Positions 51,038 to 64,000 of a stretch of DNA of 64,000 nt are shown here, one piece after another. Numbering within the stretch: the first letter of the stretch is position 1; every line of letters starts with the position of its first letter. This DNA comes from Roseivivax sediminis (GTDB lineage Bacteria > Pseudomonadota > Alphaproteobacteria > Rhodobacterales > Rhodobacteraceae). Made by a program: the position numbers and the translations under genes. The notes beneath the pieces were generated by a model, which saw nothing but the letters and a program-made list of their open reading frames with translations, was not told where the DNA came from and did no database searches. The DNA is taken from NCBI RefSeq assembly GCF_900112685.1, contig NZ_FOMS01000004.1, positions 139,025 to 203,024 on the forward strand, in the 5' to 3' direction.

Positions 51038-51670
51038 TCAGCGAACCATGTAGGCCGCCGCGATCGTCGCGAACAGCAATGCGGCGCCGCAGAGCTTGGC
51101 CGTCATCGGGTGCAGCGCCAAGGGCACCGATCTATGCGCCGTGTAAGTCGCACCGATCCCCAGGAGCAGCACAGGCTGGAAATAAAGGTAGCCCGGCCAG
51201 CCGCCCTCCGGCGGATAGGCCAGCACGCCCGCGAGCAGCAGCGCGACAAGGGCCGGCCAGCCCAGCCAGGCGCGCGGGATCGGCCGATCCGTGTCGTAGC
51301 GCGCGGCAGCCCTCGCCAGCCGCCCCGTCGGCACCGGCCAGACCCAGCTGCCGAACGCGGCGCCGACGCCCCCAGCGGCGGCCGCCACCGGGGCCGATGC
51401 GCCGAGGACCAGCACGATGGCGGTGGCTGTGGACACCCCGACATGCAAGGCGCTCGCCATCCGCTCAGGGGACCAAACGCCCCTGCCCCGTGCCGTCAGC
51501 TGGTAGCTCTCGACCACGTCGAACGACCACAGCGGCAAGGTCGCGGCGGCGAAGATCCGCACCGCGACCGCCTCGTCCGCCGAGATCCAGACGAGCAAGA
51601 CCAGGCCGGCAGCAGCGAGGAAGGCCAGCGGCACCGCGTAACCGAATGCTGTCAGGTCAGCTCGGGTCAT
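51038..51670 (-). CDS. hypothetical multi-pass membrane protein
   Basis: The 210-residue product has about six hydrophobic segments (VPLAFLAAAGLVLLVWIS, ATAIVLVLGASAPVAAAAGG, PALVALLLAGVLAYPP). I recognise no family. The ATG at 51670 overlaps the hisD stop by 4 nt, so it is co-translated with hisD. The membrane segments have less Leu/Ile and more Ala/Gly than usual, as in GC-rich genomes. Confidence 0.65.
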   Translation of the reverse strand: MTRADLTAFGYAVPLAFLAAAGLVLLVWISADEAVAVRIFAAATLPLWSFDVVESYQLTARGRGVWSPERMASALHVGVSTATAIVLVLGASAPVAAAAGGVGAAFGSWVWPVPTGRLARAAARYDTDRPIPRAWLGWPALVALLLAGVLAYPPEGGWPGYLYFQPVLLLGIGATYTAHRSVPLALHPMTAKLCGAALLFATIAAAYMVR

Positions 51671-52977
51671 TGCCCCGATTTGTTGAGCCTTTCGCGCCGC
51701 GCAGCAACCGACAATCCGTGCGCCTCCAGGCTTTCGGCGGAGGCCAGCCGTTCGGCAGAGGGGCCGATGGCGGCGAGCGCCTCGGGCGTCATCTCGGCCA
51801 GGGTCGTGCGCTTGAGGAAGTCGAGCACCGACAGCCCCGAGGAGAATCGCGCCGAGCGCGCCGTCGGCAGCACGTGATTCGGCCCACCGACGTAGTCGCC
51901 GATGGCCTCGGGCGTCCAGTGGCCGAGGAAGATCGCACCGGCATGCCGGATCTGGCGCGACAGGCTGCGCGGATCTTCCACGCAAAGCTCCAGGTGTTCG
52001 GGCGCGATCCGGTCCGACAGGTGCGCGGCCTCCGAAAGATCCGCGACGGTGATCACGGCGCCGAAGTCGCGCCAGCTCGCCCCGGCGATGGCGCGGCGCT
52101 CGAGCGTCTGGAGGCGCGCCTCCACCGCGTCGGCGACCTGCCGGCCGAAGGCGGCGTCGGTGGTGATCAGGATCGACTGGGCGCTCTCGTCGTGTTCGGC
52201 CTGACTCATCAGGTCGAGCGCGATCCAGTCGGGGTCCGAGGTGCCGTCGGCGATCACCAGGATCTCGGAGGGCCCGGCGATCATGTCGATGCCGACGCGG
52301 CCGAAGACCCGGCGCTTGGCGGCGGCGACATAGGCGTTGCCCGGCCCGGTGATCTTGTCGACGGGCGCAATGCTCTCGGTGCCGTAGGCAAGCGCGGCGA
52401 TCGCCTGCGCGCCGCCGATGCGGTAGATCTCGTCGACCCCGGCGGTGCGCGCGGCGTACATCACGAGCGGGTTGATCACGCCGTCCGGCGTGGGCACGCA
52501 GATCGCCAGCCGCTCCACCCCCGCGACCTTGGCGGGAATCGCGTTCATCAGCACCGACGAGGGATAGGAGGCGAGCCCCCCCGGCACGTAGAGCCCCGCC
52601 GCCTCCACCGGTGTCCACCGCCAGCCGAGCGTCGCGCCCTCTGGGTCGGTCCAGCTCGCGTCCGTCGGCATCTGGCGCACGTGGTAGGCGCGGATGCGCT
52701 CGGCCGCGTGGTCGAGCGCCGCGCGATCTGCGGGCGGCACGCGGGCGATCTCGGCATCGACCTCGGCGGCGGTGATGGCCAGCCCGCCGGGCTTGAGCGC
52801 GAGGCGGTCGAAGCGTTCGGTCAGCCCGATCAGCGCGGTGTCGCCCCGGGCGCGGACGTCCGAGATTATCGCGGCGACGGCGTCGTCGACATCGGGGCTG
52901 TCCTCGCGCTTGGCGGTCAGCAGCGCCTCGAAGCGCGACGCGAAGTCGGGCTCGGCGGTGTCGAGAAAGACGGGCAT
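51667..52977 (-). CDS. hisD: histidinol dehydrogenase
   Basis: HisD oxidises histidinol to histidine in two NAD-dependent steps. The 436-residue product has the zinc ligands in DLMSQAEHDESAQ, GDYVGGPNHVLPT and LEAHGLSVAARRERL, plus the catalytic RIAPEHLEL. The NAD region GPGNAYVAAAKRRVFG is normal. It is followed by a membrane-protein gene with a 4 nt overlap. The usual Rhodobacterales neighbours murA and DUF2948 lie upstream. Confidence 0.97.
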   Translation of the reverse strand: MPVFLDTAEPDFASRFEALLTAKREDSPDVDDAVAAIISDVRARGDTALIGLTERFDRLALKPGGLAITAAEVDAEIARVPPADRAALDHAAERIRAYHVRQMPTDASWTDPEGATLGWRWTPVEAAGLYVPGGLASYPSSVLMNAIPAKVAGVERLAICVPTPDGVINPLVMYAARTAGVDEIYRIGGAQAIAALAYGTESIAPVDKITGPGNAYVAAAKRRVFGRVGIDMIAGPSEILVIADGTSDPDWIALDLMSQAEHDESAQSILITTDAAFGRQVADAVEARLQTLERRAIAGASWRDFGAVITVADLSEAAHLSDRIAPEHLELCVEDPRSLSRQIRHAGAIFLGHWTPEAIGDYVGGPNHVLPTARSARFSSGLSVLDFLKRTTLAEMTPEALAAIGPSAERLASAESLEAHGLSVAARRERLNKSGQ

Positions 52978-53134
52978 GGCGGTCTCCGTGCGTCGGGCGT
53001 GGCGGCGGTTATATCGCGCATGCGCGTGGTGTCGAGTTGGGGTGGTATATGCGGCCGATGCGCGGCGCGAGACGGACCGGGCAAGCCGTGCCGCGTGTCG
53101 TCGCCGGGCTTTCGTCCGCGGAGCTCTGAGCCGA

Positions 53135-53233
53135 CCGGCCCGGAATCAAGCCGAAGGCGCCGGGCCAGCGTCATGCGTGCGTCGCATGCCTGCGGCATGA
53201 CCCGTCACGGCGGGCCGGCGCTGGCCCGGCGCC
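53135..53233. repeat. two-part dispersed repeat, reversed copy
   Basis: The 70-bp part (53135-53206) and the 23-bp part (53211-53233) are the reverse complement of the parts at 38929-38998 and 38805-38827. Here they are nearly adjacent. The copy lies in the 287-bp gap between DUF2948 and hisD; I see no gene in that gap. Confidence 0.75.
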
Positions 53234-53264
53234 TGCTCGTCGGTGGCGACCCTGGCGACGTTCC

Positions 53265-53731
53265 CTATTCCGGATGCTCCGGCGTCTTGCGGGAGGGCGC
53301 GAGATACGGGCGCGTGACGTCGCGCAGCATCACCTCCAGCGCCTCGACCTCGGCGCGGACCACGCCGTCGCCGGCGAAGACGACCTCGACCGCGCCAGCC
53401 GCGTCGGCGCCGGGCTCGAAGCCCACAGAAAGGATCTGAAGCACCGTGTCGGGATCGCCGCGGGTGACGCCCTGGCTCCGCACCCCGGTCACGTGGTCGA
53501 CCACCAGCACCGATTGCACGCGCTCCACCCCGCCGCGGGCGAGGTCCTCTTCGCGGCGCAGGCGGTTCACGAGGAAGGCGAGCCGCCGCTCGTCCGGCAG
53601 ATACCGCATTTCGGACGAGGGCAGCACCGCGTCCTGGACCAGCGCCGACAGCACCGACAGATCGTCGGGATCCATGGCCCCAAGATAGAGCGGCTTGCCG
53701 CCGGCATCCTCGAAGCGGGCATCCTCGGTCA

Positions 53732-53732
<1 letters not shown>
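53265..53732 (-). CDS. DUF2948 family protein
   Basis: The 155-residue product matches DUF2948: PLYLGAMDPDDLSVLSALVQ, RRLAFLVNRLRRE and QSVLVVDHVTGVRSQG. Function is unknown; the gene is conserved next to murA and hisD in Rhodobacterales. The ATG at 53732 shares a base with the murA stop (TGATG). Confidence 0.9.
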
Positions 53733-55000
<1,268 letters not shown>

Positions 55001-55257: not shown

Positions 55258-55332
<75 letters not shown>

Positions 55333-55342
55333 TCCTATCCCC

Positions 55343-56190
55343 TTGATCGCGAAGAAACGCCTTGCTTTCAAAGGTGTTTTCACACTCCGCTGTTACAAAC
55401 CTTGTTACAGAACGGGTGCAGCGACGGCTGGGAAACCACATTACCTACTGAACCGTGAGGGCCGCTACTTCGCGCGGAGCGTGGTGCCGACAGAGCTGCG
55501 GCCCTACCTCGAGAACAAGTCGGAGCTGCCCACGCCGCTCGGCGCTATGGTAGCACCCCATCGCCGTCGCCGAGTTGATGCAGAAGATCGCGCTGGCAGA
55601 GCGCCGCGCAGCCGAGGAGAAGGGCCTCCCGCAGGTGCCGGGCCCTTTTTCACTCACCGAAGCACAGATCGCTGTGCACAGCTACAACGTCCGACTCGTG
55701 CACACCGGCGCGCGGATTACCGAGATCATGCAGCTCCGAAAGGCGGACCTCCGTCAGGAGGACGAGCTCTACGTGATCCGGCTGTCTCCCGACGCAGGCA
55801 CGATCAAGACGGGGCATTATCGCGACGTGCCCCTGCACCACCAGCTCGTCGAGCTGGGCTTTCCTGAGTTCGTCGCTGCAGTTCCCGAAGGCCCCCTCTT
55901 CTACAGCGGCAAGGCCGACGAGGTCCGGCTCGACAAGGCCGAGCATCAAGGCAACCGCACCGCCGCGTGGCTGCGCGCGGCCAAGCTGGTGCCGACGGGC
56001 GTTCAGCCGAACCACGCGTGGCGGCATCAGCTCAAGACCGTCGCCCGCGAGATCGGTATCTCTGACCGCGTGGCAGATGCCATCTGCGGCCACGCCGGCA
56101 GGACAGCAGATGACAATTATGGCGACGTGACCGTAAAGGCGCGCGCTCGGGCCTACGTGCTGACCGCGGCACCGGTGTCTGACGCCGATT
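55343..56190 (+). pseudogene. decayed tyrosine recombinase (integrase)
   Basis: The N-terminal part (KPHYLLNREGRYFARSVVPT, then ELRPYLENKSELPTPLGA) resembles the N-terminal domain of alphaproteobacterial integrases. The frame then shifts near 55550, and a second frame continues (AVAELMQKIALAERRAAE). The core-binding domain is mostly deleted. The catalytic domain follows with box I HTGARITEI (Arg) and box II HAWRHQLKT plus GHAGRTADDNYG (His-x-x-Arg, Gly-His, Tyr). The gene cannot make a full recombinase. It sits directly after tRNA-Thr, which places an old integration event there. Confidence 0.85.
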
Positions 56191-56249
56191 TGGCGGCCGT
56201 GTCCAACGCGCTGGTGGGCAGTTCACTGCCCGCTTGGACCGAACAGTGC

Positions 56250-56912
56250 AACGCCGTGAAGCGGAGTCGAACAGTATCTCGTGGGTCTGCAGTATATAGG
56301 CATGCGCCAAAAAGGCGCGGCTGTGCGAGAGCTTCGCATGTGCGACCTGCGGCTTGGTCCGTTCGCCGCCGGTGATGGCAAAGTCTTCGCTACAGTCGAA
56401 CTGGAAGGCTTCGCCGGGCCGGAACGCCAGATGCACAAAGGTGCCGCGCCCCGTCGCGTTCTGCTCGCGCTGCCGCGCCGTCCGCCACTCCCGCGCGAAG
56501 GCTGCGACCCGGTTGTAGGAGCCGGTGTAGCCAATCGCCACGAGGTCGGCATGCAGATGCGTCAGGAGCCGGCGTTGCTAGCGCGACTTCGCGGCGTCGG
56601 TCTTTAGCCAGCCGGCGAGCTTGTCAGCAAAGGGACCGAACTTGCTCGGTCGCTCGGGCCGAGAACTTCGGCTGGATCGTGCCTGCTCCCAGATACTTCT
56701 TGATGGTGTCCCGCGAGAGCCCGGTTCGTCGCGCGATCTCTCGGATCGGCAACGTGTGAGGAAGCGCCAAGCGGCGAATGACGTTCAAAAGTCCCGTGTG
56801 GATCACTCCATTACCCTCGTCGCTCGCAGCGATCGGGAGAAGGCTCACATGGGTCAAATCTCAGTGGAAATCAGGCGCTAAGCCGGATCAGTTCCGCTCG
56901 GAAATCAACACC
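56250..56912 (-). mobile_element. truncated IS21-family element with istA remnant
   Basis: On the minus strand, LPIREIARRTGLSRDTIKKY (the IstA helix-turn-helix) begins near 56750. A frameshift and an in-frame TAG follow, then HLHADLVAIGYTGSYNRVAA and FQFDCSEDF of the transposase core, ending after YILQTHEILFD near 56265. The rest of istA and all of istB are missing. The left end at 56865-56912 carries the tandem GATTTCC-type terminal repeats of IS21 relatives. The element is therefore dead and cut at its inner edge. Confidence 0.8.
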
Positions 56913-57055: not shown

Positions 57056-57373
57056 AACGGCGGCTCCTTCCTCTTGCCTTGCTTCGGCGGAGGCTCCGGC
57101 ACAATCATATCGCGAACCGGAAGCACTCGACAACCGCGCGCGTGATGGATCGATCCGACGCGCCCAGTCCTATCTATCTCCCGTGCAAGGCCACTAAGAG
57201 TCTGTCACTCAAAAGTTTTGTGAAACTCACAATCCCGCGATTCTTTGCCGGTCTTGGCAGCGCAACGGCAGGGTTCTGCGAAATTTCCACTTGAGCATAC
57301 AACTTAGGGTTTTACCCAGCGGCAGTCGGTTCCTACGCTCGCCTCAGATTCGCGGAGGGAGTTCATACCAGTG
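57056..57373. other. 318-bp intergenic region upstream of the GntR gene
   Basis: The stretch lies between the 45-residue gene and the divergently transcribed GntR regulator, and must hold both promoters. It is AT-richer than the window average (for example around 57180-57320). No coding frame of merit is seen. I cannot place a promoter with confidence. Confidence 0.5.
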
Positions 57374-58072
57374 ATGCATATCCGTCGCACGTCATGTTCC
57401 TACAGCACCGCCTATCTCGGATTGCGTGATCAGATCATACGAGGCGACTACAAGCCGGGCTCACGCCTTGGCATATCACTGCTCGCCAACGAGTTTCGTA
57501 TGAGCCCGACGCCGGTGCGCGAGGCACTGTCGCGCCTGGCCCAGGAAGACATAATCGAGACGCGTCAGCAGCGCGGATTCTTCATCAAGGAATTCAATCC
57601 GGACGAGATCGCTGAGCTTTACGCGCTCATTCATCTGAACGTCGCGTTTCTGATGCGACGCACCGCGTCGAACGGCGCGCTGCCCACGGTGGCCGACGAG
57701 ATCTCAGACATCTTCGCGGCCGAGACGGCGACCGCTGCGTCGAGGCACGTCTTTCGGTTTCGCGATCGGCTTGCCGACCACGCCGGGTCACCGAACGCGG
57801 CGCAGACTCTGCACAACCTTTTCCTCCGGACGCACTTCATCCGGGTAGTGGAGTTCAGCAACCGCCAGCGGCACGCAAAAATGAAAAGCATCGCTGTCAG
57901 TATCGCGAGAGCGGCCCGTCGCGATGATCGGCAGAACTGTTTCAGGGCCCTCGACAGACTGTTCCTGCAGCGGGCGGAGTGGTTCCCGACGGTTACAAAT
58001 CAAGCCTCCAACCTAGCGGCACAGATCGGCAAAGATGGCAGCGTCGAGCGGGAACTGAAAGTCGCTGAATAG
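57374..58072 (+). CDS. GntR family transcriptional regulator
   Basis: The 232-residue product has an N-terminal GntR winged helix (YLGLRDQIIRGDYKPGSRL, LLANEFRMSPTPVREALSRL, then IIETRQQRGFFIKEFNP) and a C-terminal helical domain of the FCD type (AELYALIHLNVAFLMRR). The ligand is unknown; the usual FCD metal-binding histidines are not obvious. The start is ATG 57374 (a GTG lies one codon before). Codon use is slightly less GC-rich than the core genes. It stands 318 bp upstream of the peptide precursor and is the only regulator in view. Confidence 0.88.
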   Translation: MHIRRTSCSYSTAYLGLRDQIIRGDYKPGSRLGISLLANEFRMSPTPVREALSRLAQEDIIETRQQRGFFIKEFNPDEIAELYALIHLNVAFLMRRTASNGALPTVADEISDIFAAETATAASRHVFRFRDRLADHAGSPNAAQTLHNLFLRTHFIRVVEFSNRQRHAKMKSIAVSIARAARRDDRQNCFRALDRLFLQRAEWFPTVTNQASNLAAQIGKDGSVERELKVAE

Positions 58073-58390
58073 GGCGCCGGAAGCGCTATTCGCCATCATC
58101 ACACGCCCAATTACCCCTTCCTCAGAGGCGCTCATTTCGGTGCCTAAATTGGACGCTTTGGCGAACGCCACCTGATACATCGGGTGCGAATTTTTCATTT
58201 ATAGTCAAATATCTGTCCACCTTCCCGGGCGAAACACGAGGTCCCGTCTCCGAATAATATATTTCTCACCATTTCGTTGCCTGAACGTAAGGCGGCTTGC
58301 TATCGATATACGTGTCGCGAACGGCTGAAACCCGGGAATGAGTTCGGAGATCAGAATCGCGGCGCAACACTGAAATCGGAGTAAGCAGAG
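58073..58390 (+). promoter_or_regulatory. AT-rich leader region of the peptide precursor
   Basis: This 318-bp region between the GntR stop and the precursor ATG has a low-GC core (about 58180-58330). A possible sigma70-like promoter is TTGCCT (58277-58282), an 18-bp spacer and TATCGA (58301-58306). GGAG about 8 nt before the ATG is the ribosome site. No other gene is convincing here; a minus-strand 61-codon frame overlaps the GntR end and lacks a ribosome site. The promoter call is weak. Confidence 0.35.
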
Positions 58391-58585
58391 ATGAGCATCA
58401 AAGCATCTGCTCTCGACACGCACGTGTTCGACCTTCACGCCGACGACGACCTGGACCTGTTCGCAGAAGAACTGCCCGAGCAGGTTCAGCTCGTGTCCGA
58501 CTGCGCCAGCTCGGCCAGCTCGGCCAGCTGCTGCACCTGCACGGGCAGCTTCGGCAGCATGGGTTCTGTCGTCAGCTGCGGCTGA
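58391..58585 (+). CDS. RiPP precursor peptide, thiopeptide/azole type
   Basis: The 64-residue product has two parts. Residues 1-37 form an acidic leader (DDDLDLFAEELPEQVQLVSD), with FDL and LDLF hydrophobic patches usable by a recognition element. Residues 38-64 form the core: Cys at 38, 47, 48, 50 and 63, nine Ser, two Thr, several Gly, including SASCCTCTGSFG and ending VVSCG. This composition fits YcaO-dependent heterocyclisation and dehydration, and resembles thiazolylpeptide and linear azole precursors. The ATG at 58391 has a GGAG site. It is the first gene of the cluster that ends in SpaB_C and YcaO genes. The exact leader cleavage site is unknown. Confidence 0.85.
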   Translation: MSIKASALDTHVFDLHADDDLDLFAEELPEQVQLVSDCASSASSASCCTCTGSFGSMGSVVSCG

Positions 58586-58594
58586 TACGGAATT

Positions 58595-58664
58595 TGTCCA
58601 GCGCCGGAGGCAGGCCCGCCTTCTGTGTCTGGACAGGTCGGCAGGCGTGGCGCGCCTGCCGACC
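58595..58664 (+). terminator. double hairpin after the precursor gene
   Basis: The first stem pairs TGTCCAG (58595-58601) with CTGGACA (58629-58635) over a 27-nt loop. The second, immediately after, pairs GGTCGGCAGGCG (58636-58647) with CGCCTGCCGACC (58653-58664), a perfect 12-bp stem with a 5-nt loop. No U run follows. The likely effect is partial termination or mRNA protection, so that precursor exceeds enzyme transcripts. That is common in RiPP operons and is inference here. Confidence 0.6.
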
Positions 58665-58836
58665 ATCCCCCGACAGACTTGGCGATCCATCGGTTCTCTT
58701 ACTTCACCCTTCAAGATAATCGATCGGACCGGTCCCGACAATCCCCGAGCGGCGCAAATCCACTTCGCGCCGGTTGGTTCCCTGTTGCCGTCGCCCCCCT
58801 TCGGACGCGGCACAAACAGATCTGGGAGATCGCGAC

Positions 58837-59115
58837 ATGACCATCGTCATCGAACTGCCCGCGACGCTGCGCCCCTATGCGTCCGGTGAATCGCGGGTCG
58901 CGCTCGACGGAGAGGACTCCTTCGGCGGCGCGCTCGATGCGCTCGTCACGCGGCATCCGCGCCTCAGAAAGCGGCTGCTCACATCGTCGGGCGCGATCTA
59001 CGATTTCGTCGGCGTTTTCGTGAACGATCGCCGGCTCGACCGCGACGACATGCCCGATCGCGCCCTCTCGGACGGCGACGTGGTGAGCTTCGTTCCGGCG
59101 ATGGCGGGGGGCTGA
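58837..59115 (+). CDS. ThiS/MoaD/CysO-like sulfur-carrier protein
   Basis: The 92-residue product has the ubiquitin-like sulfur-carrier fold pattern (MTIVIELPATLRPYASGES, VGVFVNDRRLDRDD, LSDGDVVSFVPAMAGG) and ends in Gly-Gly, the site of adenylylation and thiocarboxylation. Length and a MTIVIELPATLRPY-type start resemble the CysO/MoaD2 subgroup more than ThiS. The ATG at 58837 has GGGAG upstream. It is 3 nt upstream of a matching E1-rhodanese gene, inside the peptide cluster. Confidence 0.85.
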   Translation: MTIVIELPATLRPYASGESRVALDGEDSFGGALDALVTRHPRLRKRLLTSSGAIYDFVGVFVNDRRLDRDDMPDRALSDGDVVSFVPAMAGG

Positions 59116-59118
59116 GCC

Positions 59119-60288
59119 ATGGCCATGGACGGATCCGCACCGCCGACCATGCCGGAGTTGACGCAGGACGAAACGCGCCGCTACGGCCGGCAGCTCGTCC
59201 TGTCCCAGATCGGGCCGGACGGACAGCGCCGCCTCAAGGGGGCGCGCGTGCTCGTCGTCGGCAGCGGCGGGCTCGGTTCGCCCGTGCTGCTCTACCTTGC
59301 CGCGGCGGGGATCGGACATCTCGGCATCGTCGATTTCGACATCGTCGACATGAGCAACCTGCACCGGCAGGTCCTGTTCACCGACGCCGACGTCGACCGC
59401 TCCAAGACAGAGAGCGCGGCCGAACGCCTGCGGGCGCAGAACCCGCACCTGTCCTTTGCGGTGCACGAGGCCCGCATCGACGCGGACAACGCGGCCGGGC
59501 TCGTCTCCGGCCACGATGTCGTCGTGGACGGCACCGACAATTTCGCTGCGCGTTACGTCATCAACGATGCCTGCGTCCGTGCGGGCGTGCCCAACGTCTC
59601 GGCATCCATCCTGCGGTTCGAGGCGCAGGTCTCGGTCTTCGACCCGGCGCGCGGGGGGCCGTGCTATCGGTGCGTATTCCCCGCCCCGCCGCCGGCGGGT
59701 CTTGCCCCGTCCTGCGCCGAGGCCGGCGTGGTGGGCGTCCTTCCGGGCATCGCCGGGACGCTCCAGGCGAACGAGGTCATCAAGCTGGTCTGCGGCATCG
59801 GCACGCCGCTCGCGGGGCGGCTTCTGACCTTCGACGCGCTCGACGCCCGGTTCCGCACCTTCGAGGTGGCGCGCGACCGCGGCTGCGTCGCCTGCGGCGA
59901 TGCTGCGGATCCCGCCCGCCCCCTCGGCCTCAACCCCGAGGCGGCGCCGGCCACCTGCCACGCCGCTGCGATCCCGGAAATGACGGTCGAGGCGCTGAGC
60001 CGCAGTCTCGCCGAAGGGACCGCCCCCCTGCTCGTCGATGTGCGGGGCGAGGCGGAGCGCGGGATCGCCGCTATTCCGGGCTGCACGGCCATGCCGCTCG
60101 ACACGATCGAGATCGCGGCGGACGCGCTGCCCACGGGCCGGACGATCCTGTGCATCTGCCACAAGGGCGGCCGCTCCATCACCGCGGCGCGCACCCTGCG
60201 CGAACTTGGCTTCGACGATGTCGCGAGCCTTGCCGGCGGCGTCGACGCCTGGGCGGCCCGCATCGACCCCAGCGTCGCCCGCTACTGA
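59119..60288 (+). CDS. MoeZ-like E1 adenylyltransferase with rhodanese domain
   Basis: The 389-residue product is a MoeB/ThiF-type E1 enzyme: ATP site GSGGLGSP (48-55), HRQVLF, DGTDNFAARYVIND, and zinc cysteines C182, C185, C256 and C259. A C-terminal rhodanese domain (about 280-389) carries the active-site loop C347-H-K-G-G-R-S. It would adenylylate the sulfur carrier's Gly-Gly and charge it with sulfur, like MoeZ with CysO or Uba4 with Urm1. It lacks the leader-binding domain of azoline-forming E1 partners, so a sulfur-donor role is more likely. It lies 69 bp upstream of the ABC genes. Confidence 0.88.
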   Translation: MAMDGSAPPTMPELTQDETRRYGRQLVLSQIGPDGQRRLKGARVLVVGSGGLGSPVLLYLAAAGIGHLGIVDFDIVDMSNLHRQVLFTDADVDRSKTESAAERLRAQNPHLSFAVHEARIDADNAAGLVSGHDVVVDGTDNFAARYVINDACVRAGVPNVSASILRFEAQVSVFDPARGGPCYRCVFPAPPPAGLAPSCAEAGVVGVLPGIAGTLQANEVIKLVCGIGTPLAGRLLTFDALDARFRTFEVARDRGCVACGDAADPARPLGLNPEAAPATCHAAAIPEMTVEALSRSLAEGTAPLLVDVRGEAERGIAAIPGCTAMPLDTIEIAADALPTGRTILCICHKGGRSITAARTLRELGFDDVASLAGGVDAWAARIDPSVARY

Positions 60289-60357
60289 ACCCCGAGGCCG
60301 CGCCGCCGCGGCCCCTGTCACCGATTGGCCCCGAGGGCCGAGATCCGAGGTTACGCC

Positions 60358-61386
60358 ATGCCTGTCTTCTCCAAGCACCGCCTTCCGCGCGACGCGGGCG
60401 ACAGCCGCCGCGGCGCCGCGCTCGATCCAGCGCAGTCGCGGCCCCTGACGGACCTTCGGGTCGCGGCCACCGGGGTCCGCAAGACCTACAAGAGCGGCGA
60501 TCGCGAGATCCGCGCCCTGAAAGGTATCGATCTGCACGTCGCCAAGGGAGAGTTCCTGGGTGTTCTCGGCCCCAACGGCGCCGGCAAGACGACGCTGATC
60601 GAATGCCTGGAGGGCATCCGCAGCCCCGACGACGGCGACGTGCGCATCCTCGGCGCCGACGCCGCGGACGCGCGCGAGATGAAGGCGGTGCGCGGCCGCA
60701 TGGGGATCGCGCTCCAGCACTCCACCCTGCCGCCGCGCCTGACGGCGCGCGAGCTTCTGGGGTTGCAGGCGCGCCTCTATGCCAGCGACGTGAGGGTCGA
60801 CCGGATGATCGACCTCGTCGGGATCGGCGACAAGGCCGACCAGAGGATCGAGCACCTCTCGGGCGGCCAGCAACAGCGGGTCGCCGTGGCCATGGCGCTG
60901 ATGGGCGATCCGGAGCTTCTGTTCCTCGACGAGCCGACCTCGCAGCTCGACCCGCACGCGCGGCTGGCCCTGTGGGAGGTGCTCTATGCCCAGCGGGACC
61001 GGCGCGAGGCATCGGTGATCATCACGACCCACCAGATGGAAGAGGCGCAGCGCATCTGCGACCGGGTGGTGATCGTCGATCAGGGTCGCATCATCGCCGA
61101 GGGGCGCCCCAAGGACCTGCTGCGCCAGCATTTCACCGCGCGGCGCATGACCTTTCTCTTGCCGATGGCCGCCACGCTCGATCTGCGCGCGCTGAACGCG
61201 CGTTCCGCGCCGGCCGGAAACGGCCTCAAGCGCATCACGCTCAGGACCGAACGGCCGAGCGCGACGCTGGTCGAACTGGGCCAGACCTTCGGCGACCAGC
61301 TTTCGGATCTCAGCGTCGAGGAACCGACGCTCGAGGAGCTTTTCGTGAAACTCACCGGGACCCCGCTTGAAGGAGAGGCCGCATGA
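60358..61386 (+). CDS. ABC transporter ATP-binding protein
   Basis: The 342-residue product has Walker A GPNGAGKTT (71-79), signature LSGGQQQR, Walker B LLFLDEP and the switch His in TTHQMEEA. The C-terminal 100 residues form an accessory domain typical of DrrA/NodI-type exporters. The N-terminal 35 residues are extra and basic. I chose ATG 60358. It overlaps the permease gene by 4 nt, so the two form one exporter, probably for the modified peptide or immunity. Confidence 0.92.
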   Translation: MPVFSKHRLPRDAGDSRRGAALDPAQSRPLTDLRVAATGVRKTYKSGDREIRALKGIDLHVAKGEFLGVLGPNGAGKTTLIECLEGIRSPDDGDVRILGADAADAREMKAVRGRMGIALQHSTLPPRLTARELLGLQARLYASDVRVDRMIDLVGIGDKADQRIEHLSGGQQQRVAVAMALMGDPELLFLDEPTSQLDPHARLALWEVLYAQRDRREASVIITTHQMEEAQRICDRVVIVDQGRIIAEGRPKDLLRQHFTARRMTFLLPMAATLDLRALNARSAPAGNGLKRITLRTERPSATLVELGQTFGDQLSDLSVEEPTLEELFVKLTGTPLEGEAA

Positions 61387-62459
61387 CCCTGGAACCTATC
61401 AGAGCGCTGTTCTCGATCCAGCTGGCGGAGACCCGGCGCGATTTCGGCGCGGTGTTCCTGAGCCTTATATTTCCGCTGTTCTTCGTCCTGCTGCTGAGCG
61501 GCTCGGTCCTGCTGTCGCCGGACTTCACGGTCGAGTTCGGAGTCGTCAACGGCGACACCAACGCGGAATCGCGCGCGTTTGCCGATGCTCTCGCTTCCCA
61601 GAACGTCGCATTGCGCACCCTCGGCGCCGACGAGGCCGCCGCCGGGCTCGACAGCGGGGAGCTGTCGGCCGTCGTCACCTTCCCCGAGGGCTGGCGCCCC
61701 GGCGGCGCGGAGCCGCTGCGGCTCGACAGCGGAGAGACTTTCTCGGGCTTCGCGCAGACGGCGGTGGACGCGGCGCGGGCGCGCGTCGGCCTCGCCGACG
61801 ACGGCAGCATCGACGCCCGCGTCGTCACCCAGGCCCGGAACGCCGAGTTCAACTTCATCTACCCGGGCATGTTGGCGCTCGCGCTGGTGCAACTCGGCCT
61901 CTTCATGACCGCGACGCCGATCCTCAAGGCGCGGGACCGCGGCACGCTGCGCTACCTGCTGCTCACTCCGCTTACCAAGACCGAGATGGTGTTCAGCCAG
62001 ATCGCCTTCCGCCTGGCCGTGGCCATCGTGCAGATCGGCATTCTGCTGGGCGTGGGCAGCTTCATCGTCGACCTGACGCTTCTGCAATGGGTCCAGACCG
62101 CCGGCCTCGCGCTCATGGGCGTGGTGATGCTGATCGCCGTTGGCTACGCGCTCTCGGGCCTCGCCAGCAGCACCGAATCCGGCATGGCCCTGATCATGAT
62201 CGCGAACTTCACGCTCATGTTCGGCGGCAACATCTTCTGGGATCCCGAGGGCTCCACCGTGCTGATGGCGATCGCCCATGTGCTGCCGGTCAGCTACCTC
62301 GCCGACGCCTTCCGGCAGGTCATCACGCATACCGACGGGCTGTGGCCGCTCTGGGTCGATCTCGTCGCCATCGTCGGCTGGACCGCTGCGATCCTCATGC
62401 TCGCGACCCGCACGTTCTCGTTCGACATGCGCAGCGGAGACACCGCCCAACGCGCCTGA
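61383..62459 (+). CDS. ABC-2 type transporter permease
   Basis: The 358-residue product has an N-terminal membrane helix (LSLIFPLFFVLLLSGSVLL), a periplasmic domain of about 110 residues with NGDTNAESRAFADALASQN, and five or so C-terminal helices (for example TAGLALMGVVMLIAVGYALS). This is the ABC-2 exporter permease layout. The overlap with the ATPase (ATGA) points to coupled translation. Role: export of, or self-protection against, the cluster's product. Confidence 0.9.
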   Translation: MTLEPIRALFSIQLAETRRDFGAVFLSLIFPLFFVLLLSGSVLLSPDFTVEFGVVNGDTNAESRAFADALASQNVALRTLGADEAAAGLDSGELSAVVTFPEGWRPGGAEPLRLDSGETFSGFAQTAVDAARARVGLADDGSIDARVVTQARNAEFNFIYPGMLALALVQLGLFMTATPILKARDRGTLRYLLLTPLTKTEMVFSQIAFRLAVAIVQIGILLGVGSFIVDLTLLQWVQTAGLALMGVVMLIAVGYALSGLASSTESGMALIMIANFTLMFGGNIFWDPEGSTVLMAIAHVLPVSYLADAFRQVITHTDGLWPLWVDLVAIVGWTAAILMLATRTFSFDMRSGDTAQRA

Positions 62460-62517
62460 CATGCCGCGCCGTGCCAGGTGCGCGGCGCACGACCCCGACG
62501 ACCCGAGGAGATGGCCC

Positions 62518-63447
62518 ATGACCGACGCCCCCGTGACCACCGACCCCAACTGGATCTTCCTCAAGATCTATCTCGGCGAAGCGGTCGACCGCATGGACTG
62601 GATGATCGCCGAGGTCGCCCGGCTCACCGCCCGCCGCGACGATCTGCGGAAATGGTTCTTCCTGCGCTATATCGACGAGGACGGCATCCATGTCCGCCTG
62701 CGCGTGCTGCCCGCCGACGAGGCAAGCGCCGACAAGATCCGGGCGGACCTGATCGACTCCACCGCCGACCGCCTCAGCCGCATCCACGCCCAGCCGCCCG
62801 GCGATTACGCGCCGATGGTGTCGCTGCCCGGTTTCGAGGAGCAGATCGAGCAGGTCACCGCCGCCCACAACGACGTGCGCGTGGTCGAGGCCGCCTACGA
62901 GCCCGAGTACGACAAGTTCGGCGGCGCCGCCGGCATGCCCATCGCCGAGACGCTGTTCTTCCGCAGCTCCGAGATCGCCGCACGGCTGATCGAGCTCGAC
63001 ACCGACGGCGCGCTGTCGCGCAAGAGCCTGATCCCGCGCCTCATGCACGAGACCTTCGAGGCGTTCCGCCCCGGCACCGACCCCGCCACCTTCTGGCGCG
63101 AATATTCCTATTACTGGCTCGGGGCGCGGACACCCGCGGCCGAGGATTGGCGCGACCGTTTCGCCGAGAAGGCCGCCGACCTCGCCGCCGACGGGATCTC
63201 GCCGCTGGCGCCGCACGGCACCGCGCAGGGCAAGTTCGATGCGCTGGTCTCGGACTGGCGCACGGCGCTGGACGCCGCCGCCGCGGATTACGCCGCGCTC
63301 GGCGGACAGGCCGGGATCAACGCCGAGGTGCTCGCCTTCACCTTCGCGCACCTGATGAACAACCGCCTCGGCATCGCCAGCCTCGAAGAGGCATACATGG
63401 CCGCGCTGGTCGAGCAAGCGGCCGAGCCCGGGAAGGAAGCGGCATGA
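62518..63447 (+). CDS. SpaB_C domain, thiopeptide-type bacteriocin biosynthesis protein
   Basis: The 309-residue product matches the SpaB_C/Lant_dehydr_C family, found in lanthipeptide and thiopeptide synthesis: WFFLRYIDEDG (46-56), HVRLRVL, YEPEYDKFGG (127-136), AETLFFRSSEIA (143-154) and a terminal HLMNNRLGI. Stand-alone members act as the elimination half of a split LanB dehydratase or as pyridine synthases forming the thiopeptide macrocycle. Which of these it is cannot be told from sequence. The ATG at 62518 has GAGGAG upstream. It overlaps the YcaO gene by 4 nt. Confidence 0.88.
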   Translation: MTDAPVTTDPNWIFLKIYLGEAVDRMDWMIAEVARLTARRDDLRKWFFLRYIDEDGIHVRLRVLPADEASADKIRADLIDSTADRLSRIHAQPPGDYAPMVSLPGFEEQIEQVTAAHNDVRVVEAAYEPEYDKFGGAAGMPIAETLFFRSSEIAARLIELDTDGALSRKSLIPRLMHETFEAFRPGTDPATFWREYSYYWLGARTPAAEDWRDRFAEKAADLAADGISPLAPHGTAQGKFDALVSDWRTALDAAAADYAALGGQAGINAEVLAFTFAHLMNNRLGIASLEEAYMAALVEQAAEPGKEAA

Positions 63448-64000
63448 ACCCGGTTCTCGACCTCGACATGGATCATCTGCGGGCGCGCTACCCCTTCCAG
63501 CGCCTGCTGATGCCGCAGGGCGGGCTTCTGTCGGGTGCCAGCAAGATGGCGCCCGACCGCGGATCGCCCGACCTGCACGTCGCCGTCACCGACATCGGCA
63601 ACATGACCAAGGTCTTCCCGCATGTCATCAAGCCCGACGGCAACGACGTCGTGGACGAGCCGATGGGCGGCGCCGGCGCCGATCTCGACGAGGAGATGGC
63701 CTGGCTGCGCGCGGTCATGGAAGGCGCGGAACGCTACGCCAACATGGCCTATGAGAGCGAGGACGATTTCGTCGTCGCCAGCGGCAACGAGGTGGGTGAG
63801 CTGGGCATCGACCTCGACACCATCGCCCGCTGCTCGGACGCCGAATACGCCGACCCGGCCTGCCCGTTCAATCCGCCCGACAAGTCCCTGCCGATCCGCT
63901 GGACGCGTGGCTGGTCGCTCACCCACGAACGCGAGCGTTGGGTGCCGACGGTGATGACGCATCTCTACGCGCGCCCCTCGCGGAACGAACGGTTCTGGCA
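63444..64000 (+). CDS. YcaO family protein, 5' part (window ends inside gene)
   Basis: The frame starts at ATG 63444 (ATGA overlap with the SpaB_C stop) and is open to the window end, giving 185 residues. It has the YcaO ATP-site pattern GGAGADLDEEMAWLRAVMEG followed by AERYANMAY (about 75-102), corresponding to the conserved G-x-G...E-x-x-ER segment, and later PIRWTRGWSLTHE. YcaO enzymes phosphorylate backbone amides to form azolines, thioamides or amidines. There is no TfuA partner or E1 fusion within the visible part. The gene continues beyond position 64000. Confidence 0.88.
   Translation, partial: MNPVLDLDMDHLRARYPFQRLLMPQGGLLSGASKMAPDRGSPDLHVAVTDIGNMTKVFPHVIKPDGNDVVDEPMGGAGADLDEEMAWLRAVMEGAERYANMAYESEDDFVVASGNEVGELGIDLDTIARCSDAEYADPACPFNPPDKSLPIRWTRGWSLTHERERWVPTVMTHLYARPSRNERFW

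What the first reader, a model, noticed from the sequence alone, without database searches (positions are those of the whole stretch)
58391..64000. Unusual RiPP cluster: Ser/Cys-rich precursor, sulfur carrier, E1-rhodanese, exporter, SpaB_C and YcaO
Seven same-strand genes with short gaps or overlaps form a modified-peptide cluster in an alphaproteobacterial accessory region. Known: YcaO makes azolines or thioamides, and SpaB_C proteins make dehydroamino acids or pyridine rings. Less usual is a CysO/MoeZ-like pair set between precursor and exporter. No canonical E1-type azoline partner, flavin dehydrogenase or LanB glutamylation enzyme is in view, though they may lie past 64000. Novelty cannot be judged here.
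Basis: partly seen in the sequence, partly recalled or inferred. Interest (0 to 1): 0.95.

Follow-up and report, generated by a model that had tools for sequence, protein, structure and literature searches.

The report
Sulfur-swapped azole peptide gene cluster
A mobile 21-kb gene set in a bacterium appears to make a small peptide carrying azole rings, dehydrated serines and backbone sulfur atoms, and it seems to bring its own protein pair for supplying that sulfur.

Summary
Confirmed and enlarged. The seven genes at 58391-64000 are real, and the contig continues them into one 18-gene, same-strand cluster (window coordinates 58391-79141). Four other records carry the same cluster; the precursor is 77-100% identical to ours in the three where it could be read.

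Best reading: a goadsporin-like peptide (azoles plus dehydroamino acids, one probable elimination-type SpaB_C) that also receives backbone thioamide(s). The ThiS-like carrier and MoeZ-like E1-rhodanese would be the cluster's own sulfur relay to TfuA. The same pair lies near TfuA/YcaO in unrelated Rhizobium, Sinorhizobium, Mycetohabitans and other loci, in two E1-rhodanese layouts, but only 2 of 40 sampled TfuA loci have both genes. A homologous Anoxybacillus core lacks both TfuA and the relay.

Thioamide RiPPs, and ThiS/MoeB genes near TfuA, are already in print; I did not find the triple combination or the relay reading for such a cluster in my searches. New variant of a known kind; no product or biochemistry seen.

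The parts
55258..55332 (+). tRNA-Thr (GGT), left edge of the island
55575..56375 (+). phage-type integrase, probably a remnant (27.9 bits, cut-off 27.1)
58391..58585 (+). precursor peptide, 64 aa, leader with LFAEELPEQ, C-terminal part ...CASSASSASCCTCTGSFGSMGSVVSCG
   Evidence: (RiPP_thiocil 23.8 bits, cut-off 25)
58595..58664 (+). two adjacent predicted hairpins between precursor and ThiS gene; two also follow the precursor in P. onubensis and P. aminophilus
58837..59115 (+). ThiS/MoaD-like sulfur carrier ending in Gly-Gly
59119..60288 (+). E1 adenylyltransferase with C-terminal rhodanese domain (MoeZ layout); GSGGLG at 48, Cys199, rhodanese Cys347
60358..61386 (+). ABC transporter ATPase (DrrA-like)
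61383..62459 (+). ABC-2 type permease
62518..63447 (+). SpaB_C / Lant_dehydr_C protein, probably glutamate-elimination subunit
63444..64000 (+). YcaO1, SagD-type cyclodehydratase with PxPxP C-terminus; cut by the window end, whole gene runs to 64790 (G000:C4:202468-203814). Eleven further cluster genes follow beyond the window; they are listed with coordinates in the full report

Best explanation
This is a horizontally moved RiPP gene cluster for a peptide with three kinds of change. YcaO1, with two leader-binding proteins and the flavin dehydrogenase, turns Cys (and perhaps Ser/Thr) of the core into azoles. The LanB-type protein glutamylates Ser/Thr and the SpaB_C protein eliminates the glutamate to give dehydroalanine, as in goadsporin. 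YcaO2 with TfuA replaces backbone amide oxygen by sulfur at one or more sites. The sulfur comes from the cluster's own relay: the rhodanese domain of the E1 protein carries persulfide, the E1 part adenylates the C-terminal Gly-Gly of the ThiS-like carrier and loads it as thiocarboxylate, and TfuA releases the sulfide to YcaO2. The PqqD-M50 protease removes the leader and the ABC/HlyD systems export the product. Shown: gene set, order, conservation, family membership, retained key residues. Inferred: every chemical step, the number and site of thioamides, a linear (not macrocyclic) product.
For: All 18 genes recur in P. aminophilus pAMI4, R. halodurans and one P. onubensis genome; a second P. 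onubensis has 17, its contig starting after the precursor. YcaO2: NCBIfam McrA-glycine thioamidation YcaO 222 bits (below that model's cut-off of 365), nearest solved chain MJ1094. TfuA: PF07812 150 bits; McrA-thioamidation TfuA 200 bits (cut-off 235); solved TfuA 6xp8 E 3.5e-55. YcaO1: SagD 282 bits, PxPxP end; YcaO2 lacks it. LanB: chain 9jhq 'Goadsporin biosynthetic protein' E 8.6e-31, 6ec7 E 1.1e-17. Gly-Gly end in 9 of 9 TfuA-linked carriers; E1 Cys and rhodanese C-x4-R in 11 of 11 E1 proteins compared. The ThiS-E1 pair recurs within about 4 kb of TfuA/YcaO in L014, L015, L071, L075, L076. 0 of 20 TfuA-less SagD loci have either gene. The homologous Anoxybacillus core has no TfuA on its whole plasmid and no ThiS or E1 in the part read. 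The genome has two other ThiS-family genes and three more strong E1-family matches, so the cluster pair is extra. PMC13063428 (discussion passage) says thioamide YcaOs outside sulfide-rich habitats tend to use a thiocarboxylated ThiS homologue and TfuA hydrolase.
Against: No product, expression or biochemistry. Most TfuA loci lack a nearby carrier: of 40 sampled besides our own, ThiS in 2 and E1 in 4, so a local relay is not required. Chance gives 0.34 ThiS within 10 kb (P 0.047) and 0.07 within 4 kb on one strand (P 0.002; the 4 kb limit was chosen after seeing the loci; rounded genome sizes). In Burkholderia multivorans (L073) a ThiS gene and an E1 gene are neighbours with no TfuA or YcaO relative within 12 kb, so the pair is not confined to thioamide clusters. 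The fold model of SpaB_C is weak (mean pLDDT 57.6) and matches full dehydratases and [4+2] cyclases about equally.
Confidence: 0.7

Rival explanations
1. A thiopeptide: the SpaB_C protein is a [4+2] cyclase that makes a pyridine macrocycle, and dehydration is finished by another protein; the thioamide is added as in thiopeptin or saalfelduracin.
For: Precursor lies at the edge of NCBI's thiocillin family (23.8 bits own, 21.7 P. aminophilus, 25.5 P. onubensis; cut-off 25). SpaB_C fits TIGR03891 thiopep_ocin. Fold search also lists 8ejz, PbtD and TbtD. Thioamide thiopeptides are known (PMC8120280, section 13).
Against: Thiopeptide clusters carry an elimination subunit and a cyclase; only one PF14028 protein was found among the 17 cluster proteins scanned. 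Sequence search finds MadB, MibB and NisB, no cyclase. In the Anoxybacillus relative LanB is followed by one SpaB_C and no second SpaB_C relative is found in the stretches read.
Confidence: 0.2
2. The ThiS/E1 pair serves something other than the thioamide: spare molybdopterin or thiamine sulfur supply, a thiocarboxylate on the product, or leader modification.
For: The carrier's best NCBIfam scores are SAMP1 and MoaD models, below their cut-offs; 38 of 40 sampled TfuA loci lack a nearby ThiS; L073 has the two genes together without TfuA.
Against: The genome has its own ThiS and E1 genes elsewhere; the pair accompanies TfuA in different RiPP cluster types and neither gene is near any of 20 SagD loci without TfuA.
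Confidence: 0.12
3. The cluster is a silent relic.
For: It lies in an island beside an integrase remnant and a resolvase-type helix-turn-helix fragment.
Against: All 18 frames are free of stops here and in P. aminophilus, whose proteins are 40-77% identical; precursor changes are mostly silent.
Confidence: 0.05

Closest known systems
Same cluster in Paracoccus aminophilus pAMI4, two P. onubensis, Roseivivax halodurans (no paper on it found: none; the Roseivivax search was too broad to tell)
   Same: gene content and precursor core
   Different: none in gene content where read; one P. onubensis contig starts after the precursor
Goadsporin (Streptomyces; PMC4603692 passages)
   Same: cyclodehydratase, dehydrogenase, split LanB; our LanB is nearest to the goadsporin chain 9jhq
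   Different: here TfuA/YcaO2 and ThiS/E1 are added; Gram-negative host; cyclodehydratase not fused; PqqD-M50 protease
Thioamide thiopeptides (saalfelduracin, thiopeptin, Sch 18640; named in PMC8120280)
   Same: azoles, dehydroamino acids and a YcaO-TfuA pair
   Different: no second SpaB_C as cyclase here; carrier/E1 pair in the cluster; I did not compare with their clusters
Archaeal McrA thioamidation (YcaO, TfuA, ThiS-COSH)
   Same: YcaO2 and TfuA score best with those models; same sulfur chemistry proposed
   Different: both score below those equivalog cut-offs; substrate is a RiPP; carrier and E1 are in the cluster
Anoxybacillus amylolyticus pDSM15939_1 'thiocillin family' cluster
   Same: homologous core enzymes and leader motif LFAEELPEQ / LYAEEMPEQ
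   Different: no TfuA on the plasmid; no ThiS, E1 or second YcaO relative in 6.7-45 kb of it
Rhizobium / Sinorhizobium / Mycetohabitans TfuA-LanM clusters with MoaD and MoeB
   Same: TfuA, YcaO and ThiS-E1 pair together
   Different: LanM machinery, Nif11-like precursor in the two annotated ones, rhodanese at the N-terminus of E1

Membership tests
Thioamidated RiPP (YcaO-TfuA) | adjacent YcaO and TfuA genes | tested here: met
   YcaO2 and TfuA overlap by 4 bases
Thioamidated RiPP (YcaO-TfuA) | thioamide in the product | not testable with these tools
   needs mass spectrometry
Azole-containing RiPP (LAP/TOMM) | SagD-type YcaO with PxPxP end, leader-binding partner and flavin dehydrogenase | tested here: met
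   SagB model itself 63 bits, below its cut-off of 78
Thiopeptide | separate [4+2] cyclase besides the elimination subunit | tested here: not met
   one PF14028 protein among 17 cluster proteins scanned; whether that one eliminates or cyclises is not settled by fold
Thiopeptide | precursor of a thiopeptide family | tested here: inconclusive
   RiPP_thiocil 23.8 bits against cut-off 25; P. onubensis copy 25.5
Goadsporin-type | split LanB: glutamylation protein plus single elimination protein | tested here: met
   9jhq E 8.6e-31; SpaB_C matches the C-terminal parts of class I dehydratases by sequence
Goadsporin-type | acetyltransferase and SRP54 immunity genes (recalled) | tested here: not met
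   no such Pfam match among 17 of the 18 proteins; the HlyD gene is named by its counterpart only
Goadsporin-type | linear product | not testable with these tools
   needs the compound
Thiocarboxylate sulfur carrier system | carrier with C-terminal Gly-Gly, E1 with nucleotide motif and Cys, rhodanese Cys | tested here: met
Thiocarboxylate sulfur carrier system | thiocarboxylate formed and used by TfuA | not testable with these tools
   needs biochemistry

The most novel reading that the evidence does not exclude
The ThiS-E1(rhodanese) pair is a separately recruited, mobile sulfur-supply module of bacterial RiPP thioamidation, taken up at least twice (two E1-rhodanese layouts), and in this Paracoccus/Roseivivax family it was joined with YcaO2-TfuA to an azole-dehydro core that exists without either in Bacillota, giving a Gram-negative linear peptide with azoles, dehydroamino acids and thioamides.
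Probability: 0.5. Interest if true: 0.72.

Novelty: new variant of a known kind. Interest (0 to 1): 0.62.

Why it matters
Whether TfuA of bacterial RiPP pathways uses a thiocarboxylated ThiS as archaeal TfuA does is named as a thing still to be determined in the conclusion of PMC8153245 (passage read). A cluster that brings carrier, loading enzyme, TfuA and YcaO together makes that question directly testable in one operon. It also predicts a triple-modified peptide in Gram-negative bacteria and suggests how thioamide formation can be moved between pathways.

Tried and rejected
Precursor tblastn against plasmids found nothing although P. aminophilus carries it, so absence by that search means little. 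Literature searches with no paper holding all terms: thioamid + sulfur carrier protein + RiPP + rhodanese, Paracoccus aminophilus + thiopeptide. MoaD + TfuA gave only the archaeal eLife paper; the Roseivivax search was too broad to tell anything. PMC8084935 (Liu 2021, the TfuA biochemistry) is not held; its content comes from passages citing it and from recall. Dropped: mapping the TfuA catalytic Ser-Lys pair (recalled; Ser80 of SMGALR is shared with 6xp8, but the Lys I first had in mind is Arg there); deciding elimination against cyclase by fold; filing the cluster as a thiopeptide. My notebook calls the debris at 56032-56857 IS fragments; Pfam found no family in two of the three frames there and a resolvase-type helix-turn-helix in the third, so I withdraw that name.
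Full report
Observation. Domain searches agree with every call: ThiS, ThiF plus rhodanese, ABC ATPase, ABC-2 permease, Lant_dehydr_C (SpaB_C) and YcaO.

What lies beyond the window. The window is G000:C4:139025-203024, so the contig could be read on. The cluster continues without a strand change: the rest of YcaO1; a small TIGR03882 leader-binding protein; a 775-aa protein whose first part resembles the PbtF chain 8t19 (E 1.2e-4) and whose second part is a SagB/nitroreductase dehydrogenase; a PqqD-M50 protease; an 849-aa protein without any Pfam hit that a four-sequence profile links to 9jhq, 'Goadsporin biosynthetic protein' (E 8.6e-31; GodF by recall), and to 6ec7 (E 1.1e-17; TbtB by recall); a MacB-type ABC system with two permeases; a second YcaO; TfuA; a HlyD-type adaptor; and an alpha/beta hydrolase.

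Genes beyond the window, in window coordinates carried on past 64000 (all + strand; add 139024 for G000:C4): YcaO1 63444-64790; small leader-binding protein 64787-65425; RRE-like part fused to SagB dehydrogenase 65422-67749; PqqD-M50 protease 67742-68791; LanB glutamylation protein 68815-71364; ABC ATPase 71379-72101; FtsX permease 72117-73280; MacB/FtsX permease 73280-74449; YcaO2 74462-75676; TfuA 75673-77028; HlyD-type adaptor 77000-78196 (named by its P. aminophilus counterpart only); alpha/beta hydrolase 78242-79141.

Two different YcaO proteins. YcaO1 fits SagD (282 bits, cut-off 219) and ends in NPLPQPFA, the PxPxP end of azoline-forming YcaOs (the meaning of that motif is recalled). 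YcaO2 scores highest with the McrA-glycine thioamidation YcaO model (222 bits, below its cut-off of 365), lacks PxPxP, and its nearest solved chain is MJ1094. TfuA matches PF07812 (150 bits) and the solved TfuA 6xp8 (E 3.5e-55) over its first 215 residues or so; its C-terminal half is unexplained.

Conservation. The same 18 genes in the same order lie on plasmid pAMI4 of Paracoccus aminophilus. Identities run from 40 to 69% for the other proteins, but 77% (48 of 62) for the precursor. A pattern-based scan of genome contigs from 84,980 species with YcaO1 found three more records: two P. onubensis and Roseivivax halodurans. R. halodurans and the first P. onubensis carry all 18 genes; the second P. 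onubensis lacks only the precursor, its contig starting just after that place, and its hydrolase is cut by the end of the stretch fetched. The R. halodurans precursor is identical in DNA; the P. onubensis one differs by 5 residues. Between own and P. aminophilus precursor, 21 codon differences are silent and 14 are not, of 63. In a sample of 394 genomes of the same family only the window's own genome had the SpaB_C gene at E 1e-8; a same-genus genome lacked it. After the precursor two hairpins are predicted before the carrier gene in own, P. onubensis and P. aminophilus (z of the folded spacer -3.3, -5.1, -3.4; for own the first 175 bases of it), a common way to make more precursor than enzyme (inference).

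Mobility. A tRNA-Thr and a weak integrase match mark the left edge. The stretch 56524-79240 is 97% identical in DNA to R. halodurans, while the region at 51667-55000 (hisD- and murA-like by eye) is 79-83% identical there in its two matching pieces: recent horizontal exchange.

The sulfur pair. The carrier ends in Gly-Gly; the E1 keeps GSGGLG, the PSCAEAG Cys (199) and the rhodanese Cys (347). The genome has two other ThiS-family genes (C9, C5) and three more strong ThiF-family matches (C4:81352, C5:252608, C17:47947), so this pair is additional. To ask what the pair does I looked at other TfuA loci. Among 385 genomes drawn from the class 21 had TfuA, and among 398 from the phylum 14 had it; both draws include our own and share two more TfuA genomes. 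I read about 10 kb on both sides, less at contig ends, of all 40 TfuA loci other than our own. ThiS and E1 both occur in 2 of 40 (L071, L076) and E1 alone in 2 more (L077, L091), all on the TfuA strand and, except L091, directly adjoining the TfuA-YcaO pair. L076 also has a second YcaO, a dehydrogenase and a HlyD/MacB exporter; four neighbours of L071 gave no telling Pfam match, so its cluster type is open. Chance, from 63 ThiS-family genes in those 31 genomes, predicts 0.34 loci within 10 kb (P 0.047) and 0.07 within 4 kb on one strand (P 0.002, limit chosen afterwards). As control, 0 of 20 SagD-type YcaO loci in genomes without TfuA had ThiS or E1 nearby; these were the best 20 of 27 such places listed, 15 of them pass the SagD cut-off, and several contigs are short. 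By numbers alone 2 or 4 of 40 against 0 of 20 is weak.

Plasmid hits found by the carrier itself are not a random sample: 26 records matched and I looked at seven. Four have TfuA nearby: P. aminophilus, and Mycetohabitans rhizoxinica, Rhizobium leguminosarum and Sinorhizobium medicae in LanM-type clusters. Three do not: Tsukamurella and Nonomuraea (ThiS only) and Burkholderia multivorans, which has E1 and ThiS together. The TfuA-linked E1 comes with the rhodanese domain behind (own, Paracoccus, Roseivivax, L076, L077, L091) or in front (Rhizobium, Sinorhizobium, Mycetohabitans, L071), which suggests at least two recruitments (no tree was made). All 9 carriers end in Gly-Gly and all 11 E1 proteins keep both Cys residues.

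The core without the module. Anoxybacillus amylolyticus pDSM15939_1 has relatives of SpaB_C (30%), YcaO1 (37% over the part read), the small leader-binding protein, dehydrogenase, PqqD-M50, LanB and exporter, and precursors with the same leader motif (LFAEELPEQ and LYAEEMPEQ against LFAEELPEQ). Its whole plasmid has no TfuA, and profiles find no ThiS, E1, second YcaO or second SpaB_C relative in 6.7-45 kb. The alphaproteobacterial cluster thus looks like that core plus a thioamide-and-sulfur module. This is one comparison, and the direction of change is not shown.

Linear or macrocyclic. Only one PF14028 protein was found among 17 cluster proteins. Its profile finds MadB (9g04), MibB and NisB, matching their C-terminal parts, which are elimination domains (recalled), and no cyclase. 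The AlphaFold model is poor (mean pLDDT 57.6) and Foldseek lists MadB first but also the cyclases 8ejz, PbtD and TbtD at similar scores. I therefore prefer a goadsporin-like product and give the thiopeptide reading 0.2.

What is in print. PMC8120280 (sections 11-13 and passages read) reports over a thousand proteobacterial TfuA clusters, thiopeptide-like and goadsporin-like ones among the clusters it mined, and its legends list ThiS and MoeB genes; its main text holds no Paracoccus, rhodanese or sulfur carrier. Its supplements were not open to me, so this very family may be drawn there. PMC6511847 (passages) notes ThiS-like proteins tied to a set of actinobacterial TfuA proteins. PMC5589413 (passages) notes moaD and moeB near methanogen tfuA. 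PMC10676384 (passages) mentions a dehydrazole cluster with TfuA. PMC13063428 (passages) states that thioamide YcaOs away from sulfide-rich habitats tend to use the ThiS-TfuA route. PMC8153245 (passages) leaves its validity for bacterial RiPPs to be determined. PMC4603692 (passages) knew two goadsporin clusters in 2015. Hence: known kinds of parts, known general idea, new combination as far as these searches show; novelty is 'new variant'.

Noticed in passing
window 57371-58072: GntR-family regulator (62 bits) just upstream of the precursor; inside the DNA shared with R. halodurans, outside the P. onubensis DNA match, which starts at 58333
   Followed up: partly
window 58505-58529: 9-bp tandem repeat (2.8 copies) encoding Ala-Ser-Ser repeats in the precursor
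   Followed up: no
L004:18340-19053 (TfuA residues 215-451): TfuA has a C-terminal half absent from the solved TfuA; Rhizobium and Mycetohabitans TfuA are also long; function unknown, weak TIGR04500 hit (26.6 bits, cut-off 180)
   Followed up: partly
L076 (G788, other class): Separate cluster: YcaO, nitroreductase, ABC ATPase, ThiS, E1-rhodanese, YcaO, TfuA, Yip1 protein, HlyD, MacB; looks like a further azole-plus-thioamide RiPP cluster
   Followed up: partly
the 40 sampled TfuA loci: 39 of 40 show no second YcaO and 40 of 40 no SpaB_C or LanB relative nearby; many may be stand-alone YcaO-TfuA pairs of unknown substrate
   Followed up: no
L073 (Burkholderia multivorans plasmid record): ThiS and E1 genes adjoining with no TfuA or YcaO relative within 12 kb
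   Followed up: no
L005:1394-4607: Iron/cobalamin-type ABC uptake genes on the - strand right after the cluster (by eye)
   Followed up: no
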